Source: Haemophilus parainfluenzae
Lineage (GTDB): Bacteria; Pseudomonadota; Gammaproteobacteria; Enterobacterales; Pasteurellaceae
Reading direction: 5' to 3'
DNA length: 64,000 nucleotides
Assembly: GCF_900450995.1 (NCBI RefSeq)
Contig: NZ_UGHY01000002.1
Location: forward strand, 1,297,001-1,361,000
This document shows, one piece after another, positions 40,883-51,567 of this stretch. Under the pieces are notes generated by a model. That model ran no database searches. It saw only the letters and a program-made list of their open reading frames with translations, and was not told where the DNA came from. Within the stretch, counting starts at the first letter, position 1. Every line of letters begins with the position of its first letter. Both the position numbers and the translations under genes were made by a program.

Positions 40883-40919
40883 AACCGCACTTTGGGTAAC
40901 TAAAGTGCGGTTATTTTTT
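40883..40919 (+). terminator. Inverted uptake-sequence pair terminating rplKA
   Basis: AACCGCACTTT (40883-40893) pairs with AAAGTGCGGTT (40902-40912), followed by a T6 run. The transposon landed just after it, so it does not disturb the ribosomal operon. Confidence 0.82.
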
Positions 40920-40922
40920 GTG

Positions 40923-40930
40923 TTCTTTTC
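40923..40930 (+). repeat. Target-site duplication, left copy
   Basis: TTCTTTTC directly abuts the left inverted repeat and matches the copy at 51487-51494 exactly and in the same orientation. Confidence 0.9.
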
Positions 40931-40957
40931 CGGTATTATGTAGCAGTTGCACAAAGA
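40931..40957 (+). repeat. Left terminal inverted repeat of the transposon
   Basis: These 27 bp begin CGGTATTATGTAGCAG and end CACAAAGA. They are identical to the reverse complement of 51460-51486. The match stops at the inner edge. Confidence 0.95.
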
Positions 40958-40983
40958 CCAAAATTTAAACAAAACCGTACAAA

Positions 40984-41010
40984 AATGCCCTTATTTCGAT
41001 AAGGGCATTA
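40984..41010. terminator. Hairpin near the left transposon end
   Basis: AATGCCCTTAT pairs with ATAAGGGCATT around a TTCG loop. T-rich sequence follows on both strands. It would insulate the ribosomal operon from leftward transcription out of the transposon, or the reverse. Confidence 0.75.
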
Positions 41011-41036
41011 TTTTTATAAATGTATCTTACAGAATT

Positions 41037-41117
41037 CTACTTATTTTTCCATTTATCACTTTTCCGTTTTCTTCTAAACAGTCTTTCTCGTGGCTCTTCT
41101 AACAATATCTGTTGCAT
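41037..41117 (-). CDS. Gene remnant or very small basic ORF at the transposon's left end
   Basis: A 26-codon frame (MQQILLEEPRERLFRRKRKS, ending WKNK) is extremely basic. The same frame is open a further ten codons upstream (LFQPKSAI) to a TGA. No ribosome site is seen, and it looks like the tail of a longer protein rather than a gene. It lies in the 343-bp gap between rplA and the membrane protein gene; the rest of that gap holds the inverted repeat and two hairpins. I do not recognise the parent. Confidence 0.3.
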   Translation of the reverse strand: MQQILLEEPRERLFRRKRKSDKWKNK

Positions 41118-41173
41118 TATCGCAGATTTAGGTTGAAATAGTCACTTTTGGTTTTAGACAAAATTAAATAAAA

Positions 41174-41194
41174 ATAGCGAGTGATACTCGCTAT
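41174..41194 (-). terminator. Terminator of the two-gene transposon module
   Basis: ATAGCGAGT pairs with ACTCGCTAT around a 3-nt loop, just downstream of the membrane protein stop codon on the minus strand and followed by a T-rich run. Confidence 0.75.
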
Positions 41195-41199
41195 TTATA

Positions 41200-41739
41200 T
41201 CAATTATGAATCCTATCAATTAGGAAAAATAAACCTAACAGAGTAACAAATATTATATTAAATAGAAATGTAAGATATATAAAAGAAAGTAATTGTTTAA
41301 AATATATATAATAATCAGAATTTATTAATGATGTAATATTAGGTAATGATAATTGCGCTAAACCACCTAAGAAATATAAAAATATACTCATAAATGCCAG
41401 ATAGCCAAAAAGATGAGTTAAAAATAATCTTCTTGTTAAATTTTTACCTCCTAATTTTGGAGGTGTTCCTGACATTACTTGATCAATTTCAGGTCTAGAG
41501 AATGTTGCTACAGCTGCTAGTGAAGCGATATAAAATCCTGATAATATCTGTAATATACCATTTACTAGATTAACAATACTAGAATTACCAAGAAAACGCA
41601 TAGGATGTTCTAAATTAGAATTAACTATTATAAATAATAGAGAGCATAATATAGGTAGTATATAATCAAATACTCTTTTCTCTCCATGCTTTATCTTTAA
41701 ATACCGCAAGGGTGATAAGATCTTTCCCAATACAGACAT
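41200..41739 (-). CDS. Unrecognised four-helix membrane protein, second gene of a two-gene module
   Basis: This 179-residue protein has four hydrophobic segments: YILPILCSLLFIIV (about 26-40), a second after FLGNSSIVNLVNGILQILSG, a third in LFGYLAFMSIFLYFLGG, and a fourth at the C-terminus (LFNIIFVTLLGLFFLI). A polar loop EIDQVMSGTPPKLGGKNLTRR separates helices 2 and 3. It has no signal peptide. The ATG lies 2 bp after the stop of the upstream gene, and its ribosome site (CGGAGA) overlaps that gene's last codons, so translation is coupled. I cannot assign a family. Coupling to a cytosolic partner inside a defence transposon fits a sensor-plus-membrane-effector system, but this is inference. 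Confidence 0.7.
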   Translation of the reverse strand: MSVLGKILSPLRYLKIKHGEKRVFDYILPILCSLLFIIVNSNLEHPMRFLGNSSIVNLVNGILQILSGFYIASLAAVATFSRPEIDQVMSGTPPKLGGKNLTRRLFLTHLFGYLAFMSIFLYFLGGLAQLSLPNITSLINSDYYIYFKQLLSFIYLTFLFNIIFVTLLGLFFLIDRIHN

Positions 41740-41741
41740 AA

Positions 41742-42722
41742 TTATCTCCGTATATCTTTTTTCAAGATATTAATCATCTTGTTCACTAATTCTTGATGTA
41801 TATTGTTTTGACACGAATTAATAGGATCCGATAATTGCACTTTTTCTCTAGAGGCAAATTGAGCCTTTGCTACATCATCAAAAGCATCTTCATAACTGCT
41901 GATACTTGTATTTTCTGAGGGTATATTATAATAAGTAGAAGATACTCTATCATTTTCAGATTTAGTTATTTTCAATCTAGAGAACCCTTTTTCTTTAGCG
42001 AAATTTGCTACTTTAGTTATAGCATCTAAGGCTGTCTTTCCAACAGATTTATTTTTTCTTTTTATTACCAGTCTCTCTTCCTTAATAACTGTTGTCCCCT
42101 CTTCATCTAATCCTGATAATCTTTCTGTTCTGATTGCTGAAATATCGCATAAGTAGCCTTTTTTAAACGACTCTTCAAAACTACTAGATGCAAAAAAATC
42201 AATATTGAAAATTGGTCGACAATCTATCTCTGCATTGTTTTCTAGCTTTCTTAAAAAACTAAATTTAGTATGCTTTTTAGTAAAATGAGTTAATATCTCA
42301 GCGATGGTACTTTTAGTTAAGCCCGGAACTTCTTCTAAAACTGCTCGATATTGAGTTTTTAAACTAGGCTCGTATGGCTCTACATCAATTACTATATGTG
42401 CCGTTACTGCAATTCCTTCATTCGCATTCTTTTTCACAATTCTTGTAACTCCTGTATGAAGATGAGAAAAAGAAGGATCAGATGCTTTTCCATTAGAAAA
42501 TTGCACTAAAATAACTAAAAATTTATCATCTATTAGTTCAGTCTTAACAATATTAAAGGAAACAGTGCCGTGTTGTCTTAGATAAACTTCATTAGGTAGA
42601 ATTTTAGAAAATGGCTTTATTAGTTCATCCATTGGTATAGAAGGAGCATCCTCAGGCGTAGAATCAAGAGTAACCTCACATTCCACAACAAATCTTTCCA
42701 TATCAACTAACATTAAGCTCAT
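41742..42722 (-). CDS. Unrecognised cytosolic protein, first gene of a two-gene module
   Basis: This 326-residue soluble protein is rich in Lys/Glu/Ser and has no membrane or signal segment. I recognise no catalytic motif. Its first half looks beta-rich (VVECEVTLDST, VSFNIVKTELIDDKFLVILVQF, VTAHIVIDVEPYEP). The middle has an alpha region (GLTKSTIAEILTHFTKKH). A later stretch, TALDAITKVANFAKEKGFSRLKITKS, could be a compact alpha/beta segment. Codon use is AT-rich, unlike the flanking ribosomal genes. It is translationally coupled to the membrane protein. A shorter start at ATG 42698 is possible (MERFVVECEV). Function unknown; the module is a candidate defence system because of where it lies. 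Confidence 0.7.
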   Translation of the reverse strand: MSLMLVDMERFVVECEVTLDSTPEDAPSIPMDELIKPFSKILPNEVYLRQHGTVSFNIVKTELIDDKFLVILVQFSNGKASDPSFSHLHTGVTRIVKKNANEGIAVTAHIVIDVEPYEPSLKTQYRAVLEEVPGLTKSTIAEILTHFTKKHTKFSFLRKLENNAEIDCRPIFNIDFFASSSFEESFKKGYLCDISAIRTERLSGLDEEGTTVIKEERLVIKRKNKSVGKTALDAITKVANFAKEKGFSRLKITKSENDRVSSTYYNIPSENTSISSYEDAFDDVAKAQFASREKVQLSDPINSCQNNIHQELVNKMINILKKDIRR

Positions 42723-42933
42723 TAAATAACCTATACCTTATTTTGTTTAATTTATGGGAGCTATTATAGAATTTAGTAAGATTTTTTTCTACAAAAATAG
42801 CTTGTCATTTATATTTTAGCCCATTCTTACATAAAGGTTTTGAAGGTTTTATAGTCCATCTTTTTTAACATATACATTAAGTGGCGTGTGTGTCATGGTT
42901 TCCATCATTGTTCCTTATGTTGTTTTAAATTAT

Positions 42934-44037
42934 TTAGGCTACGGCTAAATATTGGTTATCGTTTGAGGCTTCCAAACACAAACTTTCTAATCCGAATTTT
43001 GCCGTAGGCTTCTTATTTCCCTGCCAGTAACCGGTTAAATCTCGTGAAGGTCTCGCTTTCAAACAGCGTTTTAGTACGTTGTCGAATTTGTCTTTATCTG
43101 ACTGGTAACGAAAATCCTCACGCCATGCAGTTTCATTCGCATAGTGCATCATGTAATTATTTCCCATCTTATGATACACACCCATAATCATTCTTCTAAA
43201 TCTTGCAAAGAAGGATTCTGCTAGGTTATTAGTGGTGCCGTCAATCGAACAATACTCTTGTGAATGATTTACGCGACATAAGTCATAGTGAAATGCCAAG
43301 CCATCATAAGCAGGATTTTCATCAGCGCAAATTGTAGATTTTGGTGCGACTAAGCGATGTGTTAAAGCAAGCATATCATCAGCATTTTCCTCTTTAACTA
43401 ATGCAACGAGAGTGCGGTCGGCTCCTTTTATTATTTCCTGATTTGCAGCTTGTTGACGGAAAACCATAACGCAGGATTTATCTTTACGTTGGTGACATCT
43501 CTTACGTCTATCAATTCGCTTATGTTTAAAATTTTTGGGGCGAAGGTAGTTATTCACATAACAACCATCAATATGAATAATGCCAGTGAGTGCTGTGTAA
43601 TCTTGCGTTTTTTCAACTGCTTCACGAAATTTATGTAGTAACGCCCATGACGTTTTATATTGCACACCAATATGATGAGATAAGTTAAGAGCAGAAATAC
43701 CTTTACTATTGATAGTGAAATAATAAACCGATAACAGTAGCTTTTTTAGGGAAAGTTTAGTGTGCTGAAAAATTGTACCACTTTTTACAGAAAAACGATG
43801 TTGGCAATGCTTGCACTGCCATTGCTTACGAGAAGAAATAAAATAGGCTTTATGCTCAATCTGGCAACGAGGACATTGAACAGTATGAAAACAATGAGAA
43901 TTTCCCCAACGAGCATTTTTTAGAAGAATGAGTATTTCTGTATCAGATAAATCGTAAATAGCGAACGCAGAGAGGTTGCGAAGTGCAGAAAGTAAAAGTG
44001 GTGATGTTTTCTTGTTGTTTTTCATTTTTTCGTTCAA
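42934..44037 (-). CDS. IS1595-family transposase, first copy
   Basis: An N-terminal zinc ribbon (CPRCQIEHKAYF, then CKHCQHRF) leads to the ISXO2-like DDE domain. Acidic residues are in IHIDGCYVN and ICADENPAYD, and the last in TTNNLAESFFARFRR. At 367 residues it is a normal full-length enzyme. It is a diverged paralogue of the transposase at 49448: both share KQWxCKxC-type and NNxAESxFxRF motifs. It could be a nested IS or a second transposase of the large element. I found only a weak candidate for its own inverted ends (CTACAAAA at 42789 and its complement at 44065). Confidence 0.87.
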   Translation of the reverse strand: MNEKMKNNKKTSPLLLSALRNLSAFAIYDLSDTEILILLKNARWGNSHCFHTVQCPRCQIEHKAYFISSRKQWQCKHCQHRFSVKSGTIFQHTKLSLKKLLLSVYYFTINSKGISALNLSHHIGVQYKTSWALLHKFREAVEKTQDYTALTGIIHIDGCYVNNYLRPKNFKHKRIDRRKRCHQRKDKSCVMVFRQQAANQEIIKGADRTLVALVKEENADDMLALTHRLVAPKSTICADENPAYDGLAFHYDLCRVNHSQEYCSIDGTTNNLAESFFARFRRMIMGVYHKMGNNYMMHYANETAWREDFRYQSDKDKFDNVLKRCLKARPSRDLTGYWQGNKKPTAKFGLESLCLEASNDNQYLAVA

Positions 44038-44520
44038 CGTGCATAATCAACTTTCAACTTATTGTTTTGTAGCCAATAAGTCATGTTTCTCTTGCTAAAT
44101 TGGTTGAACAAATTAAATATAAAAAAAGCAAACGAGAAGATTTGCTTAAAAGTGGGAATATTCTAGTTCAAAATTTACTTAGTTTGCAATAAAAAGATGC
44201 CCTTTAAAGCTCTTATCGCCATCACTATAACAGCAAGAATATTGATTAATTAAGGTTATGAGCCATGTGAATTTCCTTGTGTTGCAAGGTGTTAGCCAAA
44301 CGCTGGAAATGAGAAATCGCCCACTTGAAAATCTTAAGTCAGCTCAAAGCGTTTGGGTTTTGAATACCTATGAACACTACAAGGAAATCATGCTAGAAAT
44401 CAATAAACCGAAAGGCATAATGCTTGCCAGTTAGCCGAGTAATTGGCTTAGTGATTTACTGGGGCTTACTAAAAGTATTGAGCAAGACTATTATAAATGT
44501 ATTCACACAACAATTTTATA
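44038..44520. other. 483-bp stretch with gene debris inside the transposon
   Basis: This stretch holds no intact gene. At 44090-44190 a plus-strand frame reads LVEQIKYKKSKREDLLKSGN and ends ...LLSLQ-stop, like the tail of a longer protein. A second frame begins at 44258 (separate entry). Both suggest a lost phage- or plasmid-like gene region between the transposase and the HEPN gene. Confidence 0.4.
44258..44434 (+). pseudogene. Short remnant ORF with an in-frame stop
   Basis: ATG 44258 opens a 58-codon frame (MSHVNFLVLQGVSQTLEM, later VLNTYEHYKEIMLEI) ending at TAG 44432-44434. The same frame continues after the stop (PSNWLSDLLGLTKSIEQDYY) to about 44520, so a C-to-T type change may have split an ~88-residue protein. 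TAAGG lies too close to the ATG to be a good ribosome site. I do not recognise the family. Confidence 0.35.
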
Positions 44521-45312
44521 TTAAAGTCCAATAACTAATTGTCTCATTACTCTATACGCCGCTTCGTAAACTTTATTTGTATCTTTATCAGGGGCAATTT
44601 CCCCGTGAAATAAAGCATTTCTTAAATTATAAATTATTTCTAAAGTAGCTTTATAAATTAAATCTTCATTATCAATAAACTGATATTCTCCAATCTTTAA
44701 ATAAGGCTCAGATTTTGTTAATAATGAAATCTTTTTTCTTGGATTAGCTTCTTCAAAAATTCCATTGATCTTACGTTTCTGAGAATCACTTAAACATTTA
44801 AATTCTTTGTCACAATTAAAATGCGCTAAATCATACTCGTTGTGAGTATAGCATAATACAGTTTTTTTACTTGAATTCTTCACTGTGGCAGTGACTCTTT
44901 TTATACCAACTCGTTCTAATTCAATATGAACGTGATATGAAATATTTCTATTAGAATAGTTTTGTGTTAAATTTTTTTTATCTAGCTCTACCATAAATTC
45001 TTCAAAATATAGTCTATCTCCGCCATATACTATATGATTATTTAATAAACAATAATGGAAGTGAGCGAGATTATTTTTAAAGTACGAGCTATCTTCATTA
45101 TTTCCATTTAGTAAACTTAAAAATCTCTTCCTAAATAAGCATTCTGGAGATGATTTTATTTGATTAATGGCTTCTCTATCTGTTTTTAAGTTAGGATAAG
45201 AATTTTTATACCAAGCATTAAATGAAATCCAACTTTTAACAAAATATGTGAAGTAATCTATATCAGATAATGACTTCCATTTTTCTATATTATCAGTGTA
45301 CATTGCAGTCAT
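44521..45312 (-). CDS. HEPN-domain protein linked to the restriction system
   Basis: The C-terminal region carries the HEPN signature R-x4-H as RNALFH (residues 231-236, in IIYNLRNALFHGEI). The N-terminal FTYFVKSWISFNAWY is also characteristic of this helical group. Many HEPN proteins are metal-independent RNases in toxin or defence systems; others are only binding modules, so RNase activity is inference. ATG 45312 (AAGGA about 10 nt upstream) lies inside the end of the specificity frame, overlapping it by 20 bp, so the two are translationally coupled. It is 263 residues and has no adjacent MNT antitoxin. It may act as a backup suicide effector if restriction fails. Confidence 0.72.
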   Translation of the reverse strand: MTAMYTDNIEKWKSLSDIDYFTYFVKSWISFNAWYKNSYPNLKTDREAINQIKSSPECLFRKRFLSLLNGNNEDSSYFKNNLAHFHYCLLNNHIVYGGDRLYFEEFMVELDKKNLTQNYSNRNISYHVHIELERVGIKRVTATVKNSSKKTVLCYTHNEYDLAHFNCDKEFKCLSDSQKRKINGIFEEANPRKKISLLTKSEPYLKIGEYQFIDNEDLIYKATLEIIYNLRNALFHGEIAPDKDTNKVYEAAYRVMRQLVIGL

Positions 45313-46723
45313 TAGTTTGTTTTCCTTTTATAAAATCCAAAGCTGATTCTTGATCTTTTTCAATTGCTAACTCAACAGCTTTCTTAGCTTTTTCTAACAA
45401 TCCTTTACTCTTAATACGTAAGTAATTAGATTGTCGGATTAAATCGGCGATTTGGGTTTGAATTTTCTCTTCTACATTTGGAATAACAATTTGTTTAATA
45501 TCATTTGCAGAAATATTTGTTTGAACGCCACCAGTTCCCATACGCTCTAATTGATATTTTCCGATAATCGAATTAATGATGAGCGGCAATACCTCGACAT
45601 TAATATTTTGAGGAGAGATTCGCATGATTCTTTGATTTACTACCGCATTTACACCTTTAGGCACTTTACAAGAGTTTCCAATAGTACCAGACATTGATAT
45701 TAGTATGTCATTTTCATTTGCAACATCTTTAGAACTTAAACTAATATCTCCTTGTGGAATCAACATAGCATTAGATATATCTAATGTGCCATTCCCGATA
45801 TTATTAATTCGGATTAAAGGGATTCCCGTTTCTGTATATGTCTCACTTTTGTAAGCAAAACCAGTTGAAAAATCTTTAATAAAATAATCTAAGGTATTAT
45901 ATCCTTTAGGATAGCTCTTGATTTTATCTATCAATTTTTCATACTTTTCCTGATAAAACTCCGCATCCAGCCTACCCGATGTACCGAAACTGTTGGAAAA
46001 GGATTTGATATTGACCTTTTGTAATGGCGGGTTGAAGTCTTTTAAACCTAAATGCTCTAAAAGCAGGTTTTGGGCTTGCTCGTAAACTATTTTTGATTGA
46101 CGTAATTTTTGATGAGCCAATTCACATTGCCCTTGAATACTTTCATGAAATTCATCATCAAAAACAGGTATCAACATCTCATTTATCTTGTACACAAATA
46201 AACTTAGCTGAACATTTCCTGTTGATTCTCGCAGAGATTGAAATCGTCCATATTTTGAATTTAAAAATGTAGAAAGATAATAAGCAGGGATATTTTCTTT
46301 TATACGGATAATTCCAACATGACGATCCGAATTTGCTGGTAATTGTTCTTGTTGAACAACCGCTGTATTTCCAATTGTTCCGACTGTTGAAATAATGACA
46401 TCATTTAGCCTTAATGCCGTTTTAGGATTTTCTTTATGCTGTTTAGTCGAAATATACGCATTTCCAGATAAATCAAAATAATTATCTTTTGGCGATTTAG
46501 CTGAAATCAAATTGATTTCACTGTTTTCACAAAAATCGATTGAACTGTGAATCCCATCTGTAACACTCGCAATCTCTGAAATACGCTTATACTTCCACTT
46601 TTTGATTTGACTCAATAGCTGAATATTTTCTTTCTTAAAAAATTCAGCATCTAATCTTAATTTGTTATGTTCAAAAATTAATTCGGAAAATTTAACAACT
46701 TGAATCTCCACCCCCCCCAACAA
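45293..46723 (-). CDS. Specificity (S) part of a restriction-modification enzyme, probably fused to the upstream gene
   Basis: Two target-recognition domains of HsdS type are seen: one about residues 10-200 (LRLNDVIISTVGTIGNTAVV, then STFLNSKYGRFQSL) and one about 250-440 (ENDILISMSGTIGN, IINSIIGKYQLERM). Each is followed by a helical spacer (LAHQKLRQSKIVYEQAQNLL; IRQSNYLRIKSKGLLEKAKK). No ATG fits the start. Read upstream, this frame runs through a G8 tract (plus strand C8, 46711-46718) and back into the methylase gene as LSPFDATKYQRLLGGVEIQ. One added G at 46763-46765 would fuse the two frames into a single 1,160-residue enzyme. I therefore regard this ORF as the C-terminal third of one RMS protein. 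Confidence 0.85.
   Translation of the reverse strand: MLGGVEIQVVKFSELIFEHNKLRLDAEFFKKENIQLLSQIKKWKYKRISEIASVTDGIHSSIDFCENSEINLISAKSPKDNYFDLSGNAYISTKQHKENPKTALRLNDVIISTVGTIGNTAVVQQEQLPANSDRHVGIIRIKENIPAYYLSTFLNSKYGRFQSLRESTGNVQLSLFVYKINEMLIPVFDDEFHESIQGQCELAHQKLRQSKIVYEQAQNLLLEHLGLKDFNPPLQKVNIKSFSNSFGTSGRLDAEFYQEKYEKLIDKIKSYPKGYNTLDYFIKDFSTGFAYKSETYTETGIPLIRINNIGNGTLDISNAMLIPQGDISLSSKDVANENDILISMSGTIGNSCKVPKGVNAVVNQRIMRISPQNINVEVLPLIINSIIGKYQLERMGTGGVQTNISANDIKQIVIPNVEEKIQTQIADLIRQSNYLRIKSKGLLEKAKKAVELAIEKDQESALDFIKGKQTNDCNVH
46711..46718. repeat. Homopolymer tract G8 (C8 on the plus strand) in the RMS gene
   Basis: Eight consecutive G on the coding strand lie at the junction between the methylase and specificity parts (TTG then G8 then TGGAG). 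Tracts of this length are classic slipped-strand sites in Haemophilus. Loss or gain of one base would break or restore the specificity half. Confidence 0.8.
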
Positions 46724-46752
46724 CCGCTGATATTTCGTGGCATCAAAGGGGC

Positions 46753-48774
46753 TTAGGGCTTTCCCACAAAAGACAATTTTTCTTTTTTAGCAAATTCTAA
46801 AAAGGCTTCAGCTATCCCATCTTGAGTTTTACCATCGTGGTTAAACAGGTCGTGCTTAACGATTAAATGTCCGTGGCTATCCAGCAAAGGTGAGCCATCT
46901 TCATTACGGACAAAGATTTTATCGCCGCTGTTGTCTTTACTCGGTTCTTGCATGGTAGCAAAGAAAATCGGGTAATCTTCGACTTTCGGGCAAAGTTCAT
47001 CATGCCATTTTTGTACGAATAAAACGCTGGTTTTGGTGCCAGTATGTGGTTTAAATACGTTCCCATGCAAACCAACTACGGCAAGGATGCGACAACGTTC
47101 CGCAATAAATTCGCGGATGGCTTTATCGGAGCTATTATTGAAACGCCCCTGCGGTAATACAATTGCCATTCGTCCCCCATCTTTTAAGAAATCCAGATTG
47201 CGTTCGATGAAGAGAATATCACGCCCAACTTTAGTTTGAGCTTTGCCATTGGGCTTTTTGCCCAGTTCATATTTCGCCAAAATGCGACTTTCTTTAATGT
47301 CACCAGCAAAAGGTGGATTTGCCATCAATACATCGAATTTAAAATCTCTATTACTATCCTTACTTGCTCGAAGCTTTCTGATTTTTTTCCAGCCTTCCCC
47401 ATAGGTATCCAGCCATTCAGTATCTCCAACAATCTCTTTTTTTGTATTGCCTGTTTTTTCATCCCAGCGTTCCCAATCTAAAGTATTTAAATGAAGAACA
47501 TTCGTCTGTCCATCACCTGCAATAAGATTTAATGTTCTTGCAACACGTACTGCTTTTTCATCAAAATCTATTGCAAAGACTTTAGTGGTTACATAATCTG
47601 TACACTCAATAGGTTTTGCTTCACTGGTAAATAAATGGCTCTTATGTAATCCTTTCTCTTTAAGGATTTGTTCCCATACATGAAAAATTGTATGTACAGG
47701 GAATCCACAACTACCAGATGCAGTATCAATTATGCTTTCATCCTTTGTAGGATTAAGCATTTTTACACACATATCAATGATATAACGAGGAGTAAAATAC
47801 TGTCCTTTCTCGCCCTTGCTTGATTTACTTATTAGATATTCGAAAGCTTCATCGACTACATCTAAGTTAGAATTGAATAATTTCACATCTTGAAGTGATG
47901 ACACACAAACAGATAAATGTGATGGCGTAAGTTGAATTTTTGCATCTTCAGAGAATACACCTTCCCATTTTTCATTCGCTTTTTCAAATAAAGATTGAAT
48001 TTTATTTTTTAATTCAATTTCTGTATTACCATTATTTCTGAACTCTAAATATCGATCTTTATTTCTTCCACTTTGCATTTCATCATAAAGTTTTGTGAAG
48101 ATAAGTTTAAATACTTCTTCGAATACATCTATTCCTGCGTTCGCTAGAACTTCATCCTCCATTTCTAGAATAAGATCTTTTAATGATTTTCTCTCATTGA
48201 CTAATTTATCACGTTTAATTAGATCACTTATTGTGTAGCGCTCGTTTAATATATCTGAAAGTTTTTCATTTACATTAGGGATATTAGGTATATCTTCAAA
48301 ATAGTTAGGATCTTTGCGGTGATAAAATGAAATTGACTCACCATTTGTCCAAACTCCCATCGGTGAACCAGTAGCGTTGCAATAAGATTTTAATTGTTCT
48401 TTACCATCTTTTAATTTTGGTTTTTTTAATTCAACGATAATATAAGCTGAACCTATATTATCTTTATCTTGAATAATAATATCCGCACGCTTTTCTTCTC
48501 TACCAAAATTTACCGCACTTTCCACGCTTATTCTATCTATTGGATAACGGTATTTATTAATAAGAGTAGATAAATATAGCTGTCTAATAACCTCTTCAGG
48601 AGTTAGTTTGATTTCTTTTTTTCGGATAAGACAAGTGACAAAATAGACTGTTTTTTCTTTTTGTTCTTTTAAAATTATTTTTTCTTCTAATTCCCTAATT
48701 TGATCTTGCGTAAATTGGGTTAATTTATATTGACTATCTTTAAGGATGGTTTCTAATTTAATAGTGTTAGTCAT
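46753..48774 (-). CDS. Restriction endonuclease-methyltransferase (R-M) subunit, BcgI/type IIG-like
   Basis: The N-terminus is a PD-(D/E)xK nuclease of the HsdR_N kind: Asp98 in KRADIIIQ, then Glu115 and Lys117 in IIVELKKPK. An N6-adenine methyltransferase domain follows, with GQYFTPRYIIDMCV, SAM-binding DTASGSCGF and catalytic NPPF (486-489). There is no helicase, so this is not a classical type I HsdR/HsdM set; cleavage and methylation share one chain and depend on the S part. The stop at 46753 follows FVGKP; a one-base change at 46763-46765 would run on into the S domains. GGGAGG lies 6 nt before ATG 48774. An uptake word lies at 48512-48520. The expression control region upstream is unusual (leader ORF entry). 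Confidence 0.87.
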   Translation of the reverse strand: MTNTIKLETILKDSQYKLTQFTQDQIRELEEKIILKEQKEKTVYFVTCLIRKKEIKLTPEEVIRQLYLSTLINKYRYPIDRISVESAVNFGREEKRADIIIQDKDNIGSAYIIVELKKPKLKDGKEQLKSYCNATGSPMGVWTNGESISFYHRKDPNYFEDIPNIPNVNEKLSDILNERYTISDLIKRDKLVNERKSLKDLILEMEDEVLANAGIDVFEEVFKLIFTKLYDEMQSGRNKDRYLEFRNNGNTEIELKNKIQSLFEKANEKWEGVFSEDAKIQLTPSHLSVCVSSLQDVKLFNSNLDVVDEAFEYLISKSSKGEKGQYFTPRYIIDMCVKMLNPTKDESIIDTASGSCGFPVHTIFHVWEQILKEKGLHKSHLFTSEAKPIECTDYVTTKVFAIDFDEKAVRVARTLNLIAGDGQTNVLHLNTLDWERWDEKTGNTKKEIVGDTEWLDTYGEGWKKIRKLRASKDSNRDFKFDVLMANPPFAGDIKESRILAKYELGKKPNGKAQTKVGRDILFIERNLDFLKDGGRMAIVLPQGRFNNSSDKAIREFIAERCRILAVVGLHGNVFKPHTGTKTSVLFVQKWHDELCPKVEDYPIFFATMQEPSKDNSGDKIFVRNEDGSPLLDSHGHLIVKHDLFNHDGKTQDGIAEAFLEFAKKEKLSFVGKP

Positions 48775-48810
48775 TAGAAACCTCCCATAAGTTTTGAAAG
48801 GTTGGTATAA

Positions 48811-48948
48811 TTAGGCTTGTAGGCTTGTAGGCTTGTAGGCTTGTAGGCTTGTAGGCTTGTAGGCTTGTAGGCTTGTAGGCTTGTAGGCTTGTAGGCTTGT
48901 AGGCTTGTAGGCTTGTAGGCTTGTAGGCTTGTAGGCTTGTAGGGACAT
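48811..48948 (-). CDS. Leader ORF made of 8-bp repeats in front of the restriction gene
   Basis: ATG 48948 has an excellent ribosome site (AAGGA, 6-nt spacer) and opens directly into sixteen CAAGCCTA repeats, encoding MSL then repeats of QAYKPTSL. Because 8 is not a multiple of 3, every frame reads the same eight-residue unit and no repeat frame contains a stop. With 16 copies the ORF ends at a TAA formed at the repeat edge (48811-48813), 37 nt before the methylase ATG. With 17 it would run on and stop at TAATG, overlapping that ATG. With 15 or 18 it would stop inside the methylase gene. So repeat number sets the distance between leader stop and methylase start. Confidence 0.6.
   Translation of the reverse strand: MSLQAYKPTSLQAYKPTSLQAYKPTSLQAYKPTSLQAYKPTSLQA
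48812..48939. repeat. Octanucleotide simple repeat, 16 copies
   Basis: Unit TAGGCTTG on the plus strand (CAAGCCTA on the coding strand) is repeated 16 times without error, then a partial unit TAGG. It lies between the regulator gene and the restriction gene. Long perfect short-unit repeats are how Haemophilus switches genes on and off. Confidence 0.95.
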
Positions 48949-48983
48949 TTTTGTTCCTTATTGAGTTAGTGTAAAATTAGTAT

Positions 48984-49316
48984 TTATTGTTTTTCTGATA
49001 TTTCTTTAAAAGAAATAGCAAAGGCATCCTTTAAATTTTCAGGCATAGTACGATAGTCCGCAATCAGCTTTTCTTCTTGCGCTGAGATAGTATTTTTTGG
49101 CATTACAGCTTGAAACATCTCTCCTTCACCACTCACGAGCCAGTTCAAATTCACGCCAGCTTTGGCAATGCCTGACATTCCTTCTGCATTAGGCTCACGT
49201 TCACCACCGATATAGCCCTGCATCGTACGATAAGCTATTCCTGCCTGCTCTGCAAAATCTGTAATTTTCCAATTTTTAGCTTCACAAACTTGTCTCAATC
49301 TTTCTGATATACACAT
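48984..49316 (-). CDS. Cro/CI-type helix-turn-helix regulator
   Basis: The helix-turn-helix lies in RLRQVCEAKNWKITDFAEQAGIAYRTMQGYIGG-type sequence (first ~40 residues). It is followed by VNLNWLVSGEGEMF, a hallmark of phage-repressor-like regulators. A longer frame reaches 49430, but ATG 49316 (MCISERLRQV, GGAA upstream) gives the usual N-terminus and 110 residues. There is no peptidase domain. It reads toward the restriction gene and lies back-to-back with the second transposase, so it could control either. A role like a restriction C-protein is inference. Confidence 0.78.
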   Translation of the reverse strand: MCISERLRQVCEAKNWKITDFAEQAGIAYRTMQGYIGGEREPNAEGMSGIAKAGVNLNWLVSGEGEMFQAVMPKNTISAQEEKLIADYRTMPENLKDAFAISFKEISEKQ

Positions 49317-49447
49317 TTGAGCGTTCCATTTTCGATTTAAAATTGACAAATTACGCAAACGAGCGTATATTTGTTTTCGGTTTAAACGCATTTTATCACG
49401 TTTGAGCATATTTAAAATCTCTATTAACATAAATTTTAAACAAGACG

Positions 49448-50485
49448 ATGACTCAGCATTTCTTACTTTCTAGCAAAGCTCGCACGCTTTCTTCCTACGA
49501 GATTGCACAACTCTCGGAAGAAGAAGCGTATGATTTGCTTTGTGAATTAAGATGGGGTGGAAAAGAGTTTATCACTTGTCCTAAATGTGGGGTACAACAC
49601 AAGCCTTATTATATTTCTACACGCAAACAATGGCGTTGCAAATATTGTAATCATACTTTCAGCGTCACTTCTGGCACCATTTTTGCCAATCGCAAGAAAC
49701 CGATTAAGGTTTATCTCTATGCTTTAATGGAGTGGGTAAATGCCGTCAAAGGCTTATCTTCCCTTCAATTAGCGCGTAATGCAAAACTTAATCCTCGCAC
49801 GGCATTTGTTTTATCACATAAATTCCGCAAGGCGTTATTAGAAAGTCGTGATATGAACCCCCTTTCAGGTGTAGTGGATATGGACGGCACTTATGTGCAT
49901 CCTGCACCACGTAAAGCGAATAAGAAAGCTGACCGCATTGACTATCGCTTAAAGGAAAATCAGAATCCTGATAAACGTTGTGTAATGGTTGCTCGTGAGC
50001 ATTATTCGCCAGAAGAAAAAGCCAGTAATGCGCTGCATTGTGGAGCAAAACGTTCTCACGTTTTTGTGGCACATACAGAATCGCAATCAGTAGTGAAAAG
50101 TTTTGCTGAAAAATTCATTAAACCTAATACGCAAATCAATACCGATGAAAGTACGGCTTATGATGTCTTGTTGCCTTACTATAACTTGAGAACGGTAAAC
50201 CATAAAGAAGAATATCGTAGTGACTTAGGTGTAACAAACAATCAGGCAGAAAGTCTATTCAGTCGTTTTAAGCGTATGTATTACGGACAAGTTCACCGAA
50301 TCAGCAACGAATACTTACTTAACTATGCTAATGAAATTGCGTACCGTGAGGACAATCGCCGTACTTCAAATAAAGCGCAGTTTATTGATGTATTAAGTCG
50401 ATGTTTGAAAACCACCAACGATAACAATGAATGGTGCGGTTATTGGCAGCGTAAAATTATTCATCAAGAAGTGATTTGGCAGTAG
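49448..50485 (+). CDS. IS1595-family transposase, second copy, probably mobilises the large element
   Basis: Zinc ribbon CPKCGVQHKPYY/CKYCNHTF is followed by the DDE domain with VDMDGTYVH, INTDESTAYD and NNQAESLFSRFKR. The 345 residues are full length and the catalytic residues are intact. It lies nearest the right inverted repeat, about 1 kb away, with a small gene starting 4 bp after its stop. Position makes it the better candidate for recognising the 27-bp ends. It is divergent from the Cro/CI-type regulator across about 130 bp, so that regulator may repress transposition. Confidence 0.88.
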   Translation: MTQHFLLSSKARTLSSYEIAQLSEEEAYDLLCELRWGGKEFITCPKCGVQHKPYYISTRKQWRCKYCNHTFSVTSGTIFANRKKPIKVYLYALMEWVNAVKGLSSLQLARNAKLNPRTAFVLSHKFRKALLESRDMNPLSGVVDMDGTYVHPAPRKANKKADRIDYRLKENQNPDKRCVMVAREHYSPEEKASNALHCGAKRSHVFVAHTESQSVVKSFAEKFIKPNTQINTDESTAYDVLLPYYNLRTVNHKEEYRSDLGVTNNQAESLFSRFKRMYYGQVHRISNEYLLNYANEIAYREDNRRTSNKAQFIDVLSRCLKTTNDNNEWCGYWQRKIIHQEVIWQ

Positions 50486-50489
50486 ATAT

Positions 50490-50912
50490 ATGGCATATAA
50501 CCTAGATAAGAAGCTCAAAGAATTTGAGTTTGAGCGTAAACAAGTCTTGCATCATCTTGCGTTACTTGAGGCGAATATTGCCACATTAAAACGTGCTATT
50601 GAGCTTACTCAAAAGGAAAGTGATGTAGCCCTTTATAATACGGACAACTTTGTGTACCGTTCCAAATATAAGCTCTTTAAAGGGAAAATTCGTAAATACA
50701 TCGTACAAATGATGCGAGAAGCACCCAATAAAGCCTTTACAATAGCCGAACTCACGCAACGCATTTTCGATATTGAACAAAATCCTGATACACCATCTGA
50801 AAAGCACCTTGATTCCGTTCGTAAACAACTGAATGAGTTTTATAAAAGAGAATGGATTAATAGAGTTCAAATCAGTCGAAATGAGGTTCACTGGCAATGG
50901 AAACAAAAATAG
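50490..50912 (+). CDS. Small coiled-coil / winged-helix protein, transposase partner
   Basis: This 140-residue protein begins with a coiled coil (LDKKLKEFEFERKQVLHHLALLEANIATLKRAI-type heptads, about residues 4-45). It ends with a winged-helix-like domain (APNKAFTIAELTQRIFDI, HLDSVRKQLNEFYKREWI). It starts 4 bp after the transposase stop, so the two are co-expressed. A terminator follows. It resembles in layout the convergent gene at 50940. An accessory DNA-binding role in transposition or target choice is plausible, but the family is not one I can name. Confidence 0.6.
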   Translation: MAYNLDKKLKEFEFERKQVLHHLALLEANIATLKRAIELTQKESDVALYNTDNFVYRSKYKLFKGKIRKYIVQMMREAPNKAFTIAELTQRIFDIEQNPDTPSEKHLDSVRKQLNEFYKREWINRVQISRNEVHWQWKQK

Positions 50913-50932
50913 CGGTATTTCTACCGCTATTT
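50907..50932. terminator. Bidirectional terminator between the two small coiled-coil genes
   Basis: AAATAGCGGTA (50907-50917) pairs perfectly with TACCGCTATTT (50922-50932) around a 4-nt loop, between convergent genes. Confidence 0.85.
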
Positions 50933-50939
50933 ACTATCC

Positions 50940-51398
50940 TTACTCAAGTGTTCTCAATCGCCAATGTTGTGAGTTATCTATTAAGCATTTTTCCACTAAC
51001 GATTTATACTTTAAATAGTTTAATGTACAAGCAATCGTTTGTGATTGTTTATACGGTATAACTTCTTCAATCTCTTGCCCATCTAACTTCATCGCCTGAT
51101 ATGTAATCTCCTTCACACTTAACCATTTTGAAGGCTCTTGTTTTAGTACCTGAGCAATCAACTGTTGAGGTGAAGTTTGGAAACGAAGATTTCTAAATTT
51201 GGGGTTTGACGGTAAAGGCGGTTCTTCTCGACCTTTTGCGTGATTTAATGCCACACGATAGTCTGAAATCTTCCGATCAAGATCTTTTAATTCTTTATGG
51301 AGTTGCTTGATTTGCGCTGCAATTTCTTTCTTTTCGGTTTCAATTTCTTCAATCGCTTCTTCAAGCGCATTTTCCAAAGTTGATTTTTGTTTTGTCAT
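50940..51398 (-). CDS. Second small coiled-coil / winged-helix protein at the right transposon end
   Basis: This 152-residue protein has an N-terminal coiled coil rich in Glu/Lys (ALEEAIEEIETEKKEIAAQI, then KELKDLDRKISDY). A C-terminal winged-helix-like region follows (PQQLIAQVLKQEPSKWLSVK, TIACTLNYLKYKSLVEK, ending DNSQHWRLRTLE). The plan matches the 50490 product, whose tail also ends in a W-x-W or H-W-R type beta-wing. It is read from the right inverted repeat inward, its start lying 62 bp from the repeat. A motif ATGTAGCAG at 51436-51444 repeats part of the terminal repeat in its promoter region, so the transposase or this protein might bind there. Confidence 0.6.
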   Translation of the reverse strand: MTKQKSTLENALEEAIEEIETEKKEIAAQIKQLHKELKDLDRKISDYRVALNHAKGREEPPLPSNPKFRNLRFQTSPQQLIAQVLKQEPSKWLSVKEITYQAMKLDGQEIEEVIPYKQSQTIACTLNYLKYKSLVEKCLIDNSQHWRLRTLE

Positions 51399-51459
51399 TG
51401 ACTATTCTTACCTTTCGTAAATAAAAGATAAGAAAATGTAGCAGAAACAACAAATTAAA

Positions 51460-51486
51460 TCTTTGTGCAACTGCTACATAATACCG
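51460..51486 (-). repeat. Right terminal inverted repeat of the transposon
   Basis: The exact reverse complement of 40931-40957, 27 of 27 bp. The outer edge is followed directly by the 8-bp duplication. Confidence 0.95.
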
Positions 51487-51494
51487 TTCTTTTC
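51487..51494 (+). repeat. Target-site duplication, right copy
   Basis: TTCTTTTC, identical and in the same orientation as 40923-40930. Confidence 0.9.
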
Positions 51495-51518: not shown

Positions 51519-51567
51519 AAAAAGAGCGGTCAAATTCCATTGTTTTGTGAATTTGACCGCTCTTTTT
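51519..51567. terminator. Perfect 19-bp stem terminator after the alcohol dehydrogenase gene
   Basis: The arms 51519-51537 and 51549-51567 (AAAAAGAGCGGTCAAATT and its complement) pair completely and end in T runs on both strands. It uses the GAGCGGTC variant of the uptake word. Confidence 0.85.

What the first reader, a model, noticed from the sequence alone, without database searches (positions are those of the whole stretch)
40923..51494. A complete 10.6-kb IS1595-type transposon that carries a defence cassette
Seen directly: perfect 27-bp inverted repeats at 40931-40957 and 51460-51486, each abutting an 8-bp direct repeat TTCTTTTC. Known: IS1595-family elements make 8-bp duplications and some carry passenger genes. 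Inside are two IS1595-type transposases, a restriction-methylation-specificity gene, a HEPN gene, a regulator, an unrecognised two-gene module and two small coiled-coil genes. A transposon of this kind built around restriction and a possible suicide effector is a neat unit for spreading defence. The clean ends suggest a recent insertion downstream of rplA.
Basis: partly seen in the sequence, partly recalled or inferred. Interest (0 to 1): 0.95.

Follow-up and report, generated by a model that had tools for sequence, protein, structure and literature searches.

The report
Defence transposon homing on uptake tags
This 10.6-kb jumping DNA unit in a Haemophilus-like bacterium carries predicted anti-virus defence genes and, like many of its relatives across the bacterial family, sits at a set distance from the short DNA tags these bacteria use to take up DNA, which would likely help it spread from cell to cell.

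Summary
The 27-bp ends and 8-bp duplication are exact, and eight of ten other genus members have the site without the element. The same genome holds two more copies with the same ends and other cargo. The element belongs to a Pasteurellaceae-wide family: 35 non-redundant elements bounded by ends and duplication, 6.3-11.6 kb. They share Tnp1, a second diverged IS1595-type transposase (34 of 35), a predicted coiled-coil/winged-helix protein beside Tnp1 (35 of 35) and a regulator (33 of 35), around exchangeable cargo. Cargo matched defence models in 31 of 35, restriction-modification in 28.

The larger finding is the target. In 24 of 37 sites an exact DNA uptake signal sequence (USS) ends 9-12 bp from the duplication, against 0.86% of AT-rich intergenic control positions. 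Family-wide, 223 of 467 ends have the USS core within 30 bp, mostly at 1, 10-12 or 20-21 bp, against 3 of 110 ends of another IS1595-family element. I infer target recognition and spread helped by natural transformation; neither is tested. A Neisseria ICE using uptake sequences is a published precedent (PMC7371117).

The parts
40903..40911 (+). USS core AAGTGCGGT of the rplA terminator; ends 11 bp before the target duplication
40923..40930 (.). left copy of the 8-bp target duplication TTCTTTTC
   Evidence: single copy in the empty sites of L178-L182
40931..40957 (+). left terminal inverted repeat, 27 bp, perfect
   Evidence: family end
41055..41135 (-). remnant of the left-end ~161-aa gene present in related elements (residues 135-161)
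   Evidence: tblastn and blastn against L069
41200..41739 (-). candidate defence protein PDC-M53B (179 aa)
   Evidence: PADLOC E 4.5e-40
41742..42722 (-). candidate defence protein PDC-M53A (326 aa)
   Evidence: PADLOC E 1.2e-16
42934..44037 (-). second transposase (Tnp2w lineage), IS1595 DDE and Zn ribbon, catalytic residues kept
   Evidence: Pfam
44521..45312 (-). 263-aa protein with an RNALFH motif (possible HEPN), part of the cargo trio shared with L120 and L170
   Evidence: no Pfam hit
45293..46723 (-). DNA specificity subunit (476 aa)
   Evidence: Pfam Methylase_S
46753..48774 (-). nuclease-methylase fusion (673 aa): HSDR_N_2 + N6_Mtase
   Evidence: Pfam, PADLOC
48812..48943 (.). 8-bp tandem repeat, 16.5 perfect copies, just upstream of the nuclease-methylase start; likely phase-variable
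   Evidence: same unit in 8 of 12 related cassettes (window included)
48984..49430 (-). XRE-type HTH regulator (148 aa)
   Evidence: Pfam HTH_26; in 33 of 35 elements
49448..50485 (+). transposase Tnp1 (345 aa), IS1595 DDE and Zn ribbon, catalytic residues kept
   Evidence: Pfam
50490..50912 (+). CCB, 140 aa: predicted N-terminal helix plus winged helix, beside Tnp1 in 35 of 35 elements
50940..51398 (-). CCA, 152 aa: paralogue of CCB at the right end
51460..51486 (-). right terminal inverted repeat, 27 bp, perfect
51487..51494 (.). right copy of the target duplication TTCTTTTC
51522..51564 (.). next inverted pair AAGAGCGGT / ACCGCTCTT, terminator-like

Best explanation
This is a 10.6-kb IS1595-type transposon, one of a Pasteurellaceae-wide family, that carries an exchangeable cassette of predicted defence genes, sits at a set spacing from a DNA uptake signal sequence as many of its relatives do, and likely spreads between cells by natural transformation. 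Shown by sequence: perfect ends, 8-bp duplication, single-copy empty sites, three copies with different cargo in one genome, and a conserved core of two diverged DDE transposases (one towards each end), an XRE regulator and a CCB/CCA pair predicted to be winged-helix proteins, around a cargo slot. Shown statistically: where a USS core lies close, the duplication mostly starts 1, 10-12 or 20-21 bp from it, and the first two places coincide with the A+T-rich tracts behind USS cores. Inferred: a transposase or the CCB/CCA proteins read the USS (or the DNA shape it makes) and place the cut about one helical turn from the core. The core itself stays intact, so a new copy is delivered next to an uptake tag, here just past a gene end. 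DNA from lysed neighbours holding such a copy would then be taken up preferentially. The cargo would restrict phage, and hypermutable 8-bp repeats may switch the window's nuclease-methylase on and off.
For: Ends, duplication and empty sites. Family core: second transposase in 34 of 35, CCB in 35 of 35, XRE in 33 of 35 elements; a CCA-family right-end protein in 34 of 35 (single-linkage blastp clusters). Catalytic D, D, E and N kept in 28 of 28 Tnp1 and 30 of 30 second transposases of at least 320 aa. USS: exact 9-mer 9-12 bp from the duplication in 24 of 37 sites against 220 of 25,571 AT-rich intergenic control positions (binomial p 9e-41). One end per genome, not chosen for USS and in part the same sites as the 37: 15 of 30 at 9-13 bp. 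Family-wide 223 of 467 ends with GCGGT within 30 bp; of the 150 listed, 19 at 1 bp, 83 at 10-12, 19 at 20-21, 29 elsewhere. Negative control: 3 of 110 ends of the ISApl4/IS1016 type (Fisher 1e-22). A+T content behind 289 USS cores in the same loci, those beside elements included, peaks at 1 and 11-12 bp; PMC1626085 (passages) gives two AT-rich motifs 3' of the core. Host: 1,463 Hin-type USS against 46 reversed-control matches, a ComEC-family match. Elements are poor in USS: 15 in 313 kb against 212 in 383 kb of flanks. Cargo: 31 of 35. A different IS1595-family transposon, Tn7560, has been moved by natural transformation in A. pleuropneumoniae (PMC12561309, passages).
Against: 13 of 37 sites lack an exact USS at 9-12 bp; 8 have neither that nor a strong hairpin. 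Three sites (L092, L100, L104) are palindromes without a USS, and L158 and L173 have only one-mismatch USSs. Control positions come from the same loci and are autocorrelated; the 467 ends include both ends of one copy and inherited copies, so p-values are nominal. The side facing the USS is not fixed: second-transposase side 12, Tnp1 side 6, both 5, none 12 of 35. Single ends of relatives in Moraxella bovoculi (L107) and Psittacicella (L109) show no USS in the 60 bp printed. No protein has been shown to bind a USS. Transposition, uptake and defence are untested here. Four of 35 elements carry no PADLOC-recognised cargo among the proteins scanned, and housekeeping proteins also match some PADLOC models.
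Confidence: 0.78

Rival explanations
1. The transposase targets the centre or T-tail of terminator hairpins; uptake sequences are hit only because Pasteurellaceae build many terminators from inverted USS pairs.
For: 20 of 37 sites lie in a strong spanning hairpin against 31 of 1,500 intergenic control positions; L092, L100 and L104 are palindromes without a USS; in the Apl-type sites with a strong hairpin the duplication is centred on it.
Against: 9 of 24 USS-spaced sites have no strong spanning hairpin, the window among them. Among strong hairpins, 14 of 20 element sites hold an exact USS pair against 8 of 31 control positions (Fisher p 0.003). Spacing follows the USS core (1, 10-12, 20-21 bp), and some miniature copies sit beside one unpaired USS (those copies were partly picked from the USS list).
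Confidence: 0.3
2. There is no target preference; copies near a USS are seen because they were taken up and spread more often by transformation.
For: The host is USS-rich and has a ComEC-family gene; elements themselves are USS-poor.
Against: Uptake would favour closeness to a USS but not discrete spacings of 1, 10-12 and 20-21 bp. Ends of the ISApl4/IS1016 type in the same 140 genomes show 3 of 110.
Confidence: 0.08
3. The unit is a composite: two separate IS1595 insertions that trapped genes between them, so the second transposase is incidental.
For: Two IS1595-type transposases are present, and composite-type IS1595-family transposons exist (Tn7560, PMC12561309, passages).
Against: Only one facing pair of ends in the window at up to 6 mismatches. 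The two transposases are 37-52% identical, each group conserved in itself, and occur together in 34 of 35 elements, in opposed orientation in the map.
Confidence: 0.04

Closest known systems
IS1595 family of insertion sequences (incl. IS1016, ISApl4; passenger-carrying members recalled from Siguier et al. 2009)
   Same: DDE_Tnp_IS1595 and Zn-ribbon transposases, 8-bp A+T-rich duplications, passenger genes
   Different: Two diverged transposases per element, conserved winged-helix pair and regulator, 26-27-bp ends unlike ISApl4's GGGGCTGTACTAGA (PMC12561309, passages), USS association that ISApl4-type ends lack
ICENmu of Neisseria (PMC7371117, abstract and passages)
   Same: A mobile element proposed to use DNA uptake sequences as chromosomal integration sites; its authors raise uptake-assisted transfer and safe terminator sites
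   Different: A conjugative element with an integrase and a 21-bp att motif that contains the DUS, two insertion sites; here a DDE transposon placed at a spacing from the USS in many genera, carrying mostly defence cargo
Insertion sequences that target REP palindromes (PMC1525189, passages)
   Same: IS elements preferring a repeated extragenic palindrome
   Different: REP is not an uptake signal; other bacteria, mostly other IS types
BcgI-like / Type IIB nuclease-methylase plus specificity subunit (recalled)
   Same: Nuclease and N6-methylase domains in one protein, separate specificity subunit with two matched stretches
   Different: Recognition and cleavage unknown; gene preceded by an 8-bp repeat array
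Tn7-like and other defence-carrying transposons (recalled)
   Same: Safe target sites and defence cargo
   Different: No TnsABCDE parts among the Pfam matches of the window's ten genes; IS1595-type transposases

Membership tests
IS1595 family | DDE_Tnp_IS1595 domain with Zn ribbon | tested here: met
   Both transposases over the curated cut-offs
IS1595 family | 8-bp target duplication and terminal inverted repeats | tested here: met
IS1595 family | one transposase gene per element, as in typical members (recalled) | tested here: not met
   second transposase in 34 of 35 elements; so a variant, not a typical member
Composite transposon | two IS copies each with both ends | tested here: not met
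   one facing pair of ends only; transposases 37-52% identical
Tn7-like transposon | TnsABC(D/E) genes | tested here: not met
   no such Pfam match in the window's ten genes
Type IIB (BcgI-like) restriction-modification | nuclease-methylase fusion plus separate specificity subunit | tested here: met
   HSDR_N_2 + N6_Mtase and Methylase_S
Type IIB (BcgI-like) restriction-modification | cutting on both sides of the site | not testable with these tools
   needs enzyme assay
PDC-M53 candidate defence system | both proteins, adjacent | tested here: met
   PADLOC E 1.2e-16 and 4.5e-40, 41200-42722
HEPN nuclease (263-aa gene) | HEPN domain profile match | tested here: not met
   no Pfam hit at E 0.01 and no PADLOC hit; RNALFH motif by eye only
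USS-targeting mobile element | set spacing to USS beyond controls | tested here: met
USS-targeting mobile element | biochemical recognition of USS | not tested

The most novel reading that the evidence does not exclude
A family of transposons has evolved to home on the DNA uptake tags of naturally competent Pasteurellaceae, using two transposases and a winged-helix pair that read the tag one helical turn away. Each such copy is shipped with an uptake address and spreads as free DNA, making natural transformation the delivery route of a swap-in defence cassette.
Probability: 0.5. Interest if true: 0.95.

Novelty: new variant of a known kind. Interest (0 to 1): 0.86.

Why it matters
Why competent bacteria keep so many uptake sequences (1,463 in this genome), and how defence genes move between them, are open questions. 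A widespread transposon that lands beside those sequences and carries mostly restriction-modification cargo links the two, and makes the link testable with plain plasmid and uptake assays. It also gives a simple handle for finding defence systems: search for the 26-bp end in Pasteurellaceae and read the cargo. Several cargo proteins scanned matched no Pfam or PADLOC model.

Tried and rejected
Composite transposon, Tn7-like and single-IS readings were tested and dropped (see rivals and membership). Plasmid and phage records: Tnp1 relatives there are all under 60% identical (192 plasmid and 2 phage records; the tool may leave out records very near the window's genome), so neither vehicle is supported. 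A possible frameshift between nuclease-methylase and specificity genes was examined: the same junction stands in 5 of 11 other cassettes, the other 6 continue with different sequence, so it looks ordinary. A run of 8 G there was seen in the window only, of 12 cassettes. Solved-structure sequence searches with CCB and CCA gave only coiled-coil and weak winged-helix matches. Fold searches gave Fur-type winged helices at TM about 0.4, which supports DNA binding but not USS recognition.

Rows dropped: 59 loci numbered L069 or higher gave no pair of ends with a duplication at up to 1 mismatch; 16 of them had ends on both strands, 43 on one or none. Some are the same records fetched twice. L034 (1.5 kb) was left out of the 37; L114 and L173 lack Tnp1 and were left out of the 35. 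The 20 small stretches were partly picked from the list, so they are not used for frequencies. Of 87 cargo clusters I scanned representatives, not every one: the small clusters of L008, L071, L129 and some others were not scanned against PADLOC.

Literature: ten full-text searches. None listed a paper that by title and abstract start concerns a USS-targeting transposon in Pasteurellaceae. Papers looked into by passages only: PMC1590033, PMC3339403, PMC6211672, PMC12561309, PMC1626085, PMC3928620, PMC1525189, PMC7371117. Subscription journals, preprint servers and ISfinder were not available, so absence in print is not shown; ISHps3, ISHps4 and ISMha6 were met only as names.
Full report
OBSERVATION. 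The ends and duplications are exactly as stated. The genome holds three pairs of the end sequence; all three elements (10,556, 9,609 and 9,051 bp) have perfect 8-bp duplications and share a 95-98% identical right-end module of 2.0-2.5 kb, while the middle differs. In eight of ten other species of the genus the rplA-downstream site is uninterrupted; five read a single TTCTTTTC and three a diverged single copy.

FAMILY. The end (up to 3 mismatches) occurs in 94 of 140 genomes of the bacterial family, with zero matches of the reversed control in the rows shown. Tnp1-like transposases at E 1e-60, the second transposase included, occur in 53 of 140. The 35 run from 6,272 to 11,637 bp, median 9,060. 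Reading from left to right: second transposase pointing out, cargo, XRE, then Tnp1 and CCB pointing out, and a CCA-type protein at the right end; a few carry extra genes between CCB and CCA. The second transposase comes in two lineages (386-aa type in 20 of 35, 367-aa type in 14 of 35). Both keep the catalytic residues and are 37-48% and 40-52% identical to Tnp1. CCA and CCB are homologous to each other (hhalign probability 98.7). AlphaFold2 models give a long N-terminal helix and a winged helix for both (mean pLDDT 80.7 and 84.2). Public records call many CCB relatives 'DNA repair protein', a name with no support seen here.

CARGO. By PADLOC at E 1e-5, on representatives of blastp clusters, 31 of 35 elements carry a defence-labelled gene: restriction-modification in 28 (Types IIB-like, II, IIG and III; L158 and L161 on a methylase alone), AbiL with AbiE (L102), a retron I-B pair (L155) and PD-T4-4 (L172). 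L069 also carries an RnlA-type gene. Not recognised among the proteins scanned: L008 and L071 (small-protein cargo) and L092 and L129 (YadA-type genes). As a control, 37 window proteins outside the element gave 18 member-family matches over 16 PADLOC families, none named as a restriction enzyme or methylase; so a PADLOC match alone is weak, and the 28 restriction-modification cases carry the weight. The window's trio (263-aa, specificity, nuclease-methylase) recurs in L120 and L170, at other sites in another genus. The window differs from its left-end relatives in that M53A/B replaced most of the left-end 161-aa gene: 198 bp at 91% identity, then the match resumes at element position 1900. An octamer repeat (CCTACAAG) precedes the nuclease-methylase in 8 of 12 cassettes, with 6 to 29 copies; L141 has a 5-bp repeat there instead and three have none.

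TARGET. Printing the flanks showed USS cores facing many insertions. Converging exact USS 9-mers within 60 bp on both sides: 17 of 37 sites, against 0.31% of 58,287 intergenic control positions. Exact USS ending 9-12 bp from the duplication: 24 of 37 (13 Hin type, 7 Apl type, 4 AAGAGCGGT by my reading), against 0.86% of 25,571 AT-rich intergenic positions. A sample not chosen for USS, one end per genome from 30 of the 94 genomes and in part the same sites, gives 15 of 30 at 9-13 bp and 19 of 30 within 30 bp. Over the family, 223 of 467 exact ends have GCGGT within 30 bp. The 150 of these that were listed fall at 1 bp (19), 10-12 (83) and 20-21 (19), the other 29 scattered. The same test on ISApl4/IS1016-type ends (sequence from PMC12561309) gives 3 of 110. 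The 1-bp and 10-12-bp places fall on the A+T maxima behind the USS core, in line with the two AT-rich motifs described 3' of the H. influenzae core (PMC1626085, passages). Miniature 140-172-bp copies and cargo-only copies show the same ends and duplications, most of them with a USS at such a spacing.

MECHANISM. Shown: structure, empty sites, copies with different cargo, spacing. Inferred: recognition of the USS or its shape by a transposase or by CCB/CCA, cutting about one helical turn away, avoidance of gene disruption (not measured over the set), and preferential uptake of the inserted copy. The host has 1,463 Hin-type USSs and a ComEC-family gene. The elements hardly carry USSs of their own (0.05 against 0.55 per kb), so a flanking USS would matter for uptake. 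Hairpin targeting remains the main rival: strong spanning hairpins occur at 20 of 37 sites, and 8 of 37 sites show neither feature.

COMPARISON. [quoted passage not shown] The idea is therefore in print for an integrase-driven Neisseria element. A DDE transposon doing so, in Pasteurellaceae, with a two-transposase core and mostly defence cargo, was not found in my ten searches of the held library. I therefore rate it a new variant of a known kind, not categorically new.

Noticed in passing
window 48812-48943; L069, L072, L096, L100, L104, L151, L170: CCTACAAG/TAGGCTTG octamer array of 6-29 copies just upstream of the nuclease-methylase gene in 8 of 12 cassettes; looks like a phase-variation switch.
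   Followed up: partly
L196-L202, L204, L207: Miniature copies (140-172 bp) with the same ends and duplications and no genes, 8 of 9 with an exact USS within 22 bp.
   Followed up: partly
L189, L190, L191: 3.3-kb cargo-only elements with the same ends in three species of one genus; the 237- and 306-aa genes of L189 match no PADLOC model.
   Followed up: partly
L092, L100, L104 insertion sites: Insertions into the centre of a USS-less palindrome (AAAGTGGGTTAAAG and variants); a similar flank is seen at L033. Possibly a decayed USS or another repeat.
   Followed up: no
L142: Element nested in another copy's Tnp1 reading frame (by eye), with GGTGCGGT next to the duplication.
   Followed up: no
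L173: A unit with these ends, a second-type transposase and no Tnp1 carries an RTX-family reading frame (Pfam); described only.
   Followed up: no
L079, L091: Records titled Pseudomonas stutzeri NCTC11607 (same element as in G128, genus g38, the genus of the Rodentibacter pneumotropicus genome) and a Streptococcus MAG hold 90% and 99% identical Tnp1: mislabel or contamination.
   Followed up: partly
L008, L071, L161: A shared set of small proteins (177, 146 and 137 aa; L008 and L071 also a 275-aa DUF4013-like one) as cargo with no PADLOC or Pfam name for those scanned otherwise: candidate new cargo system.
   Followed up: partly
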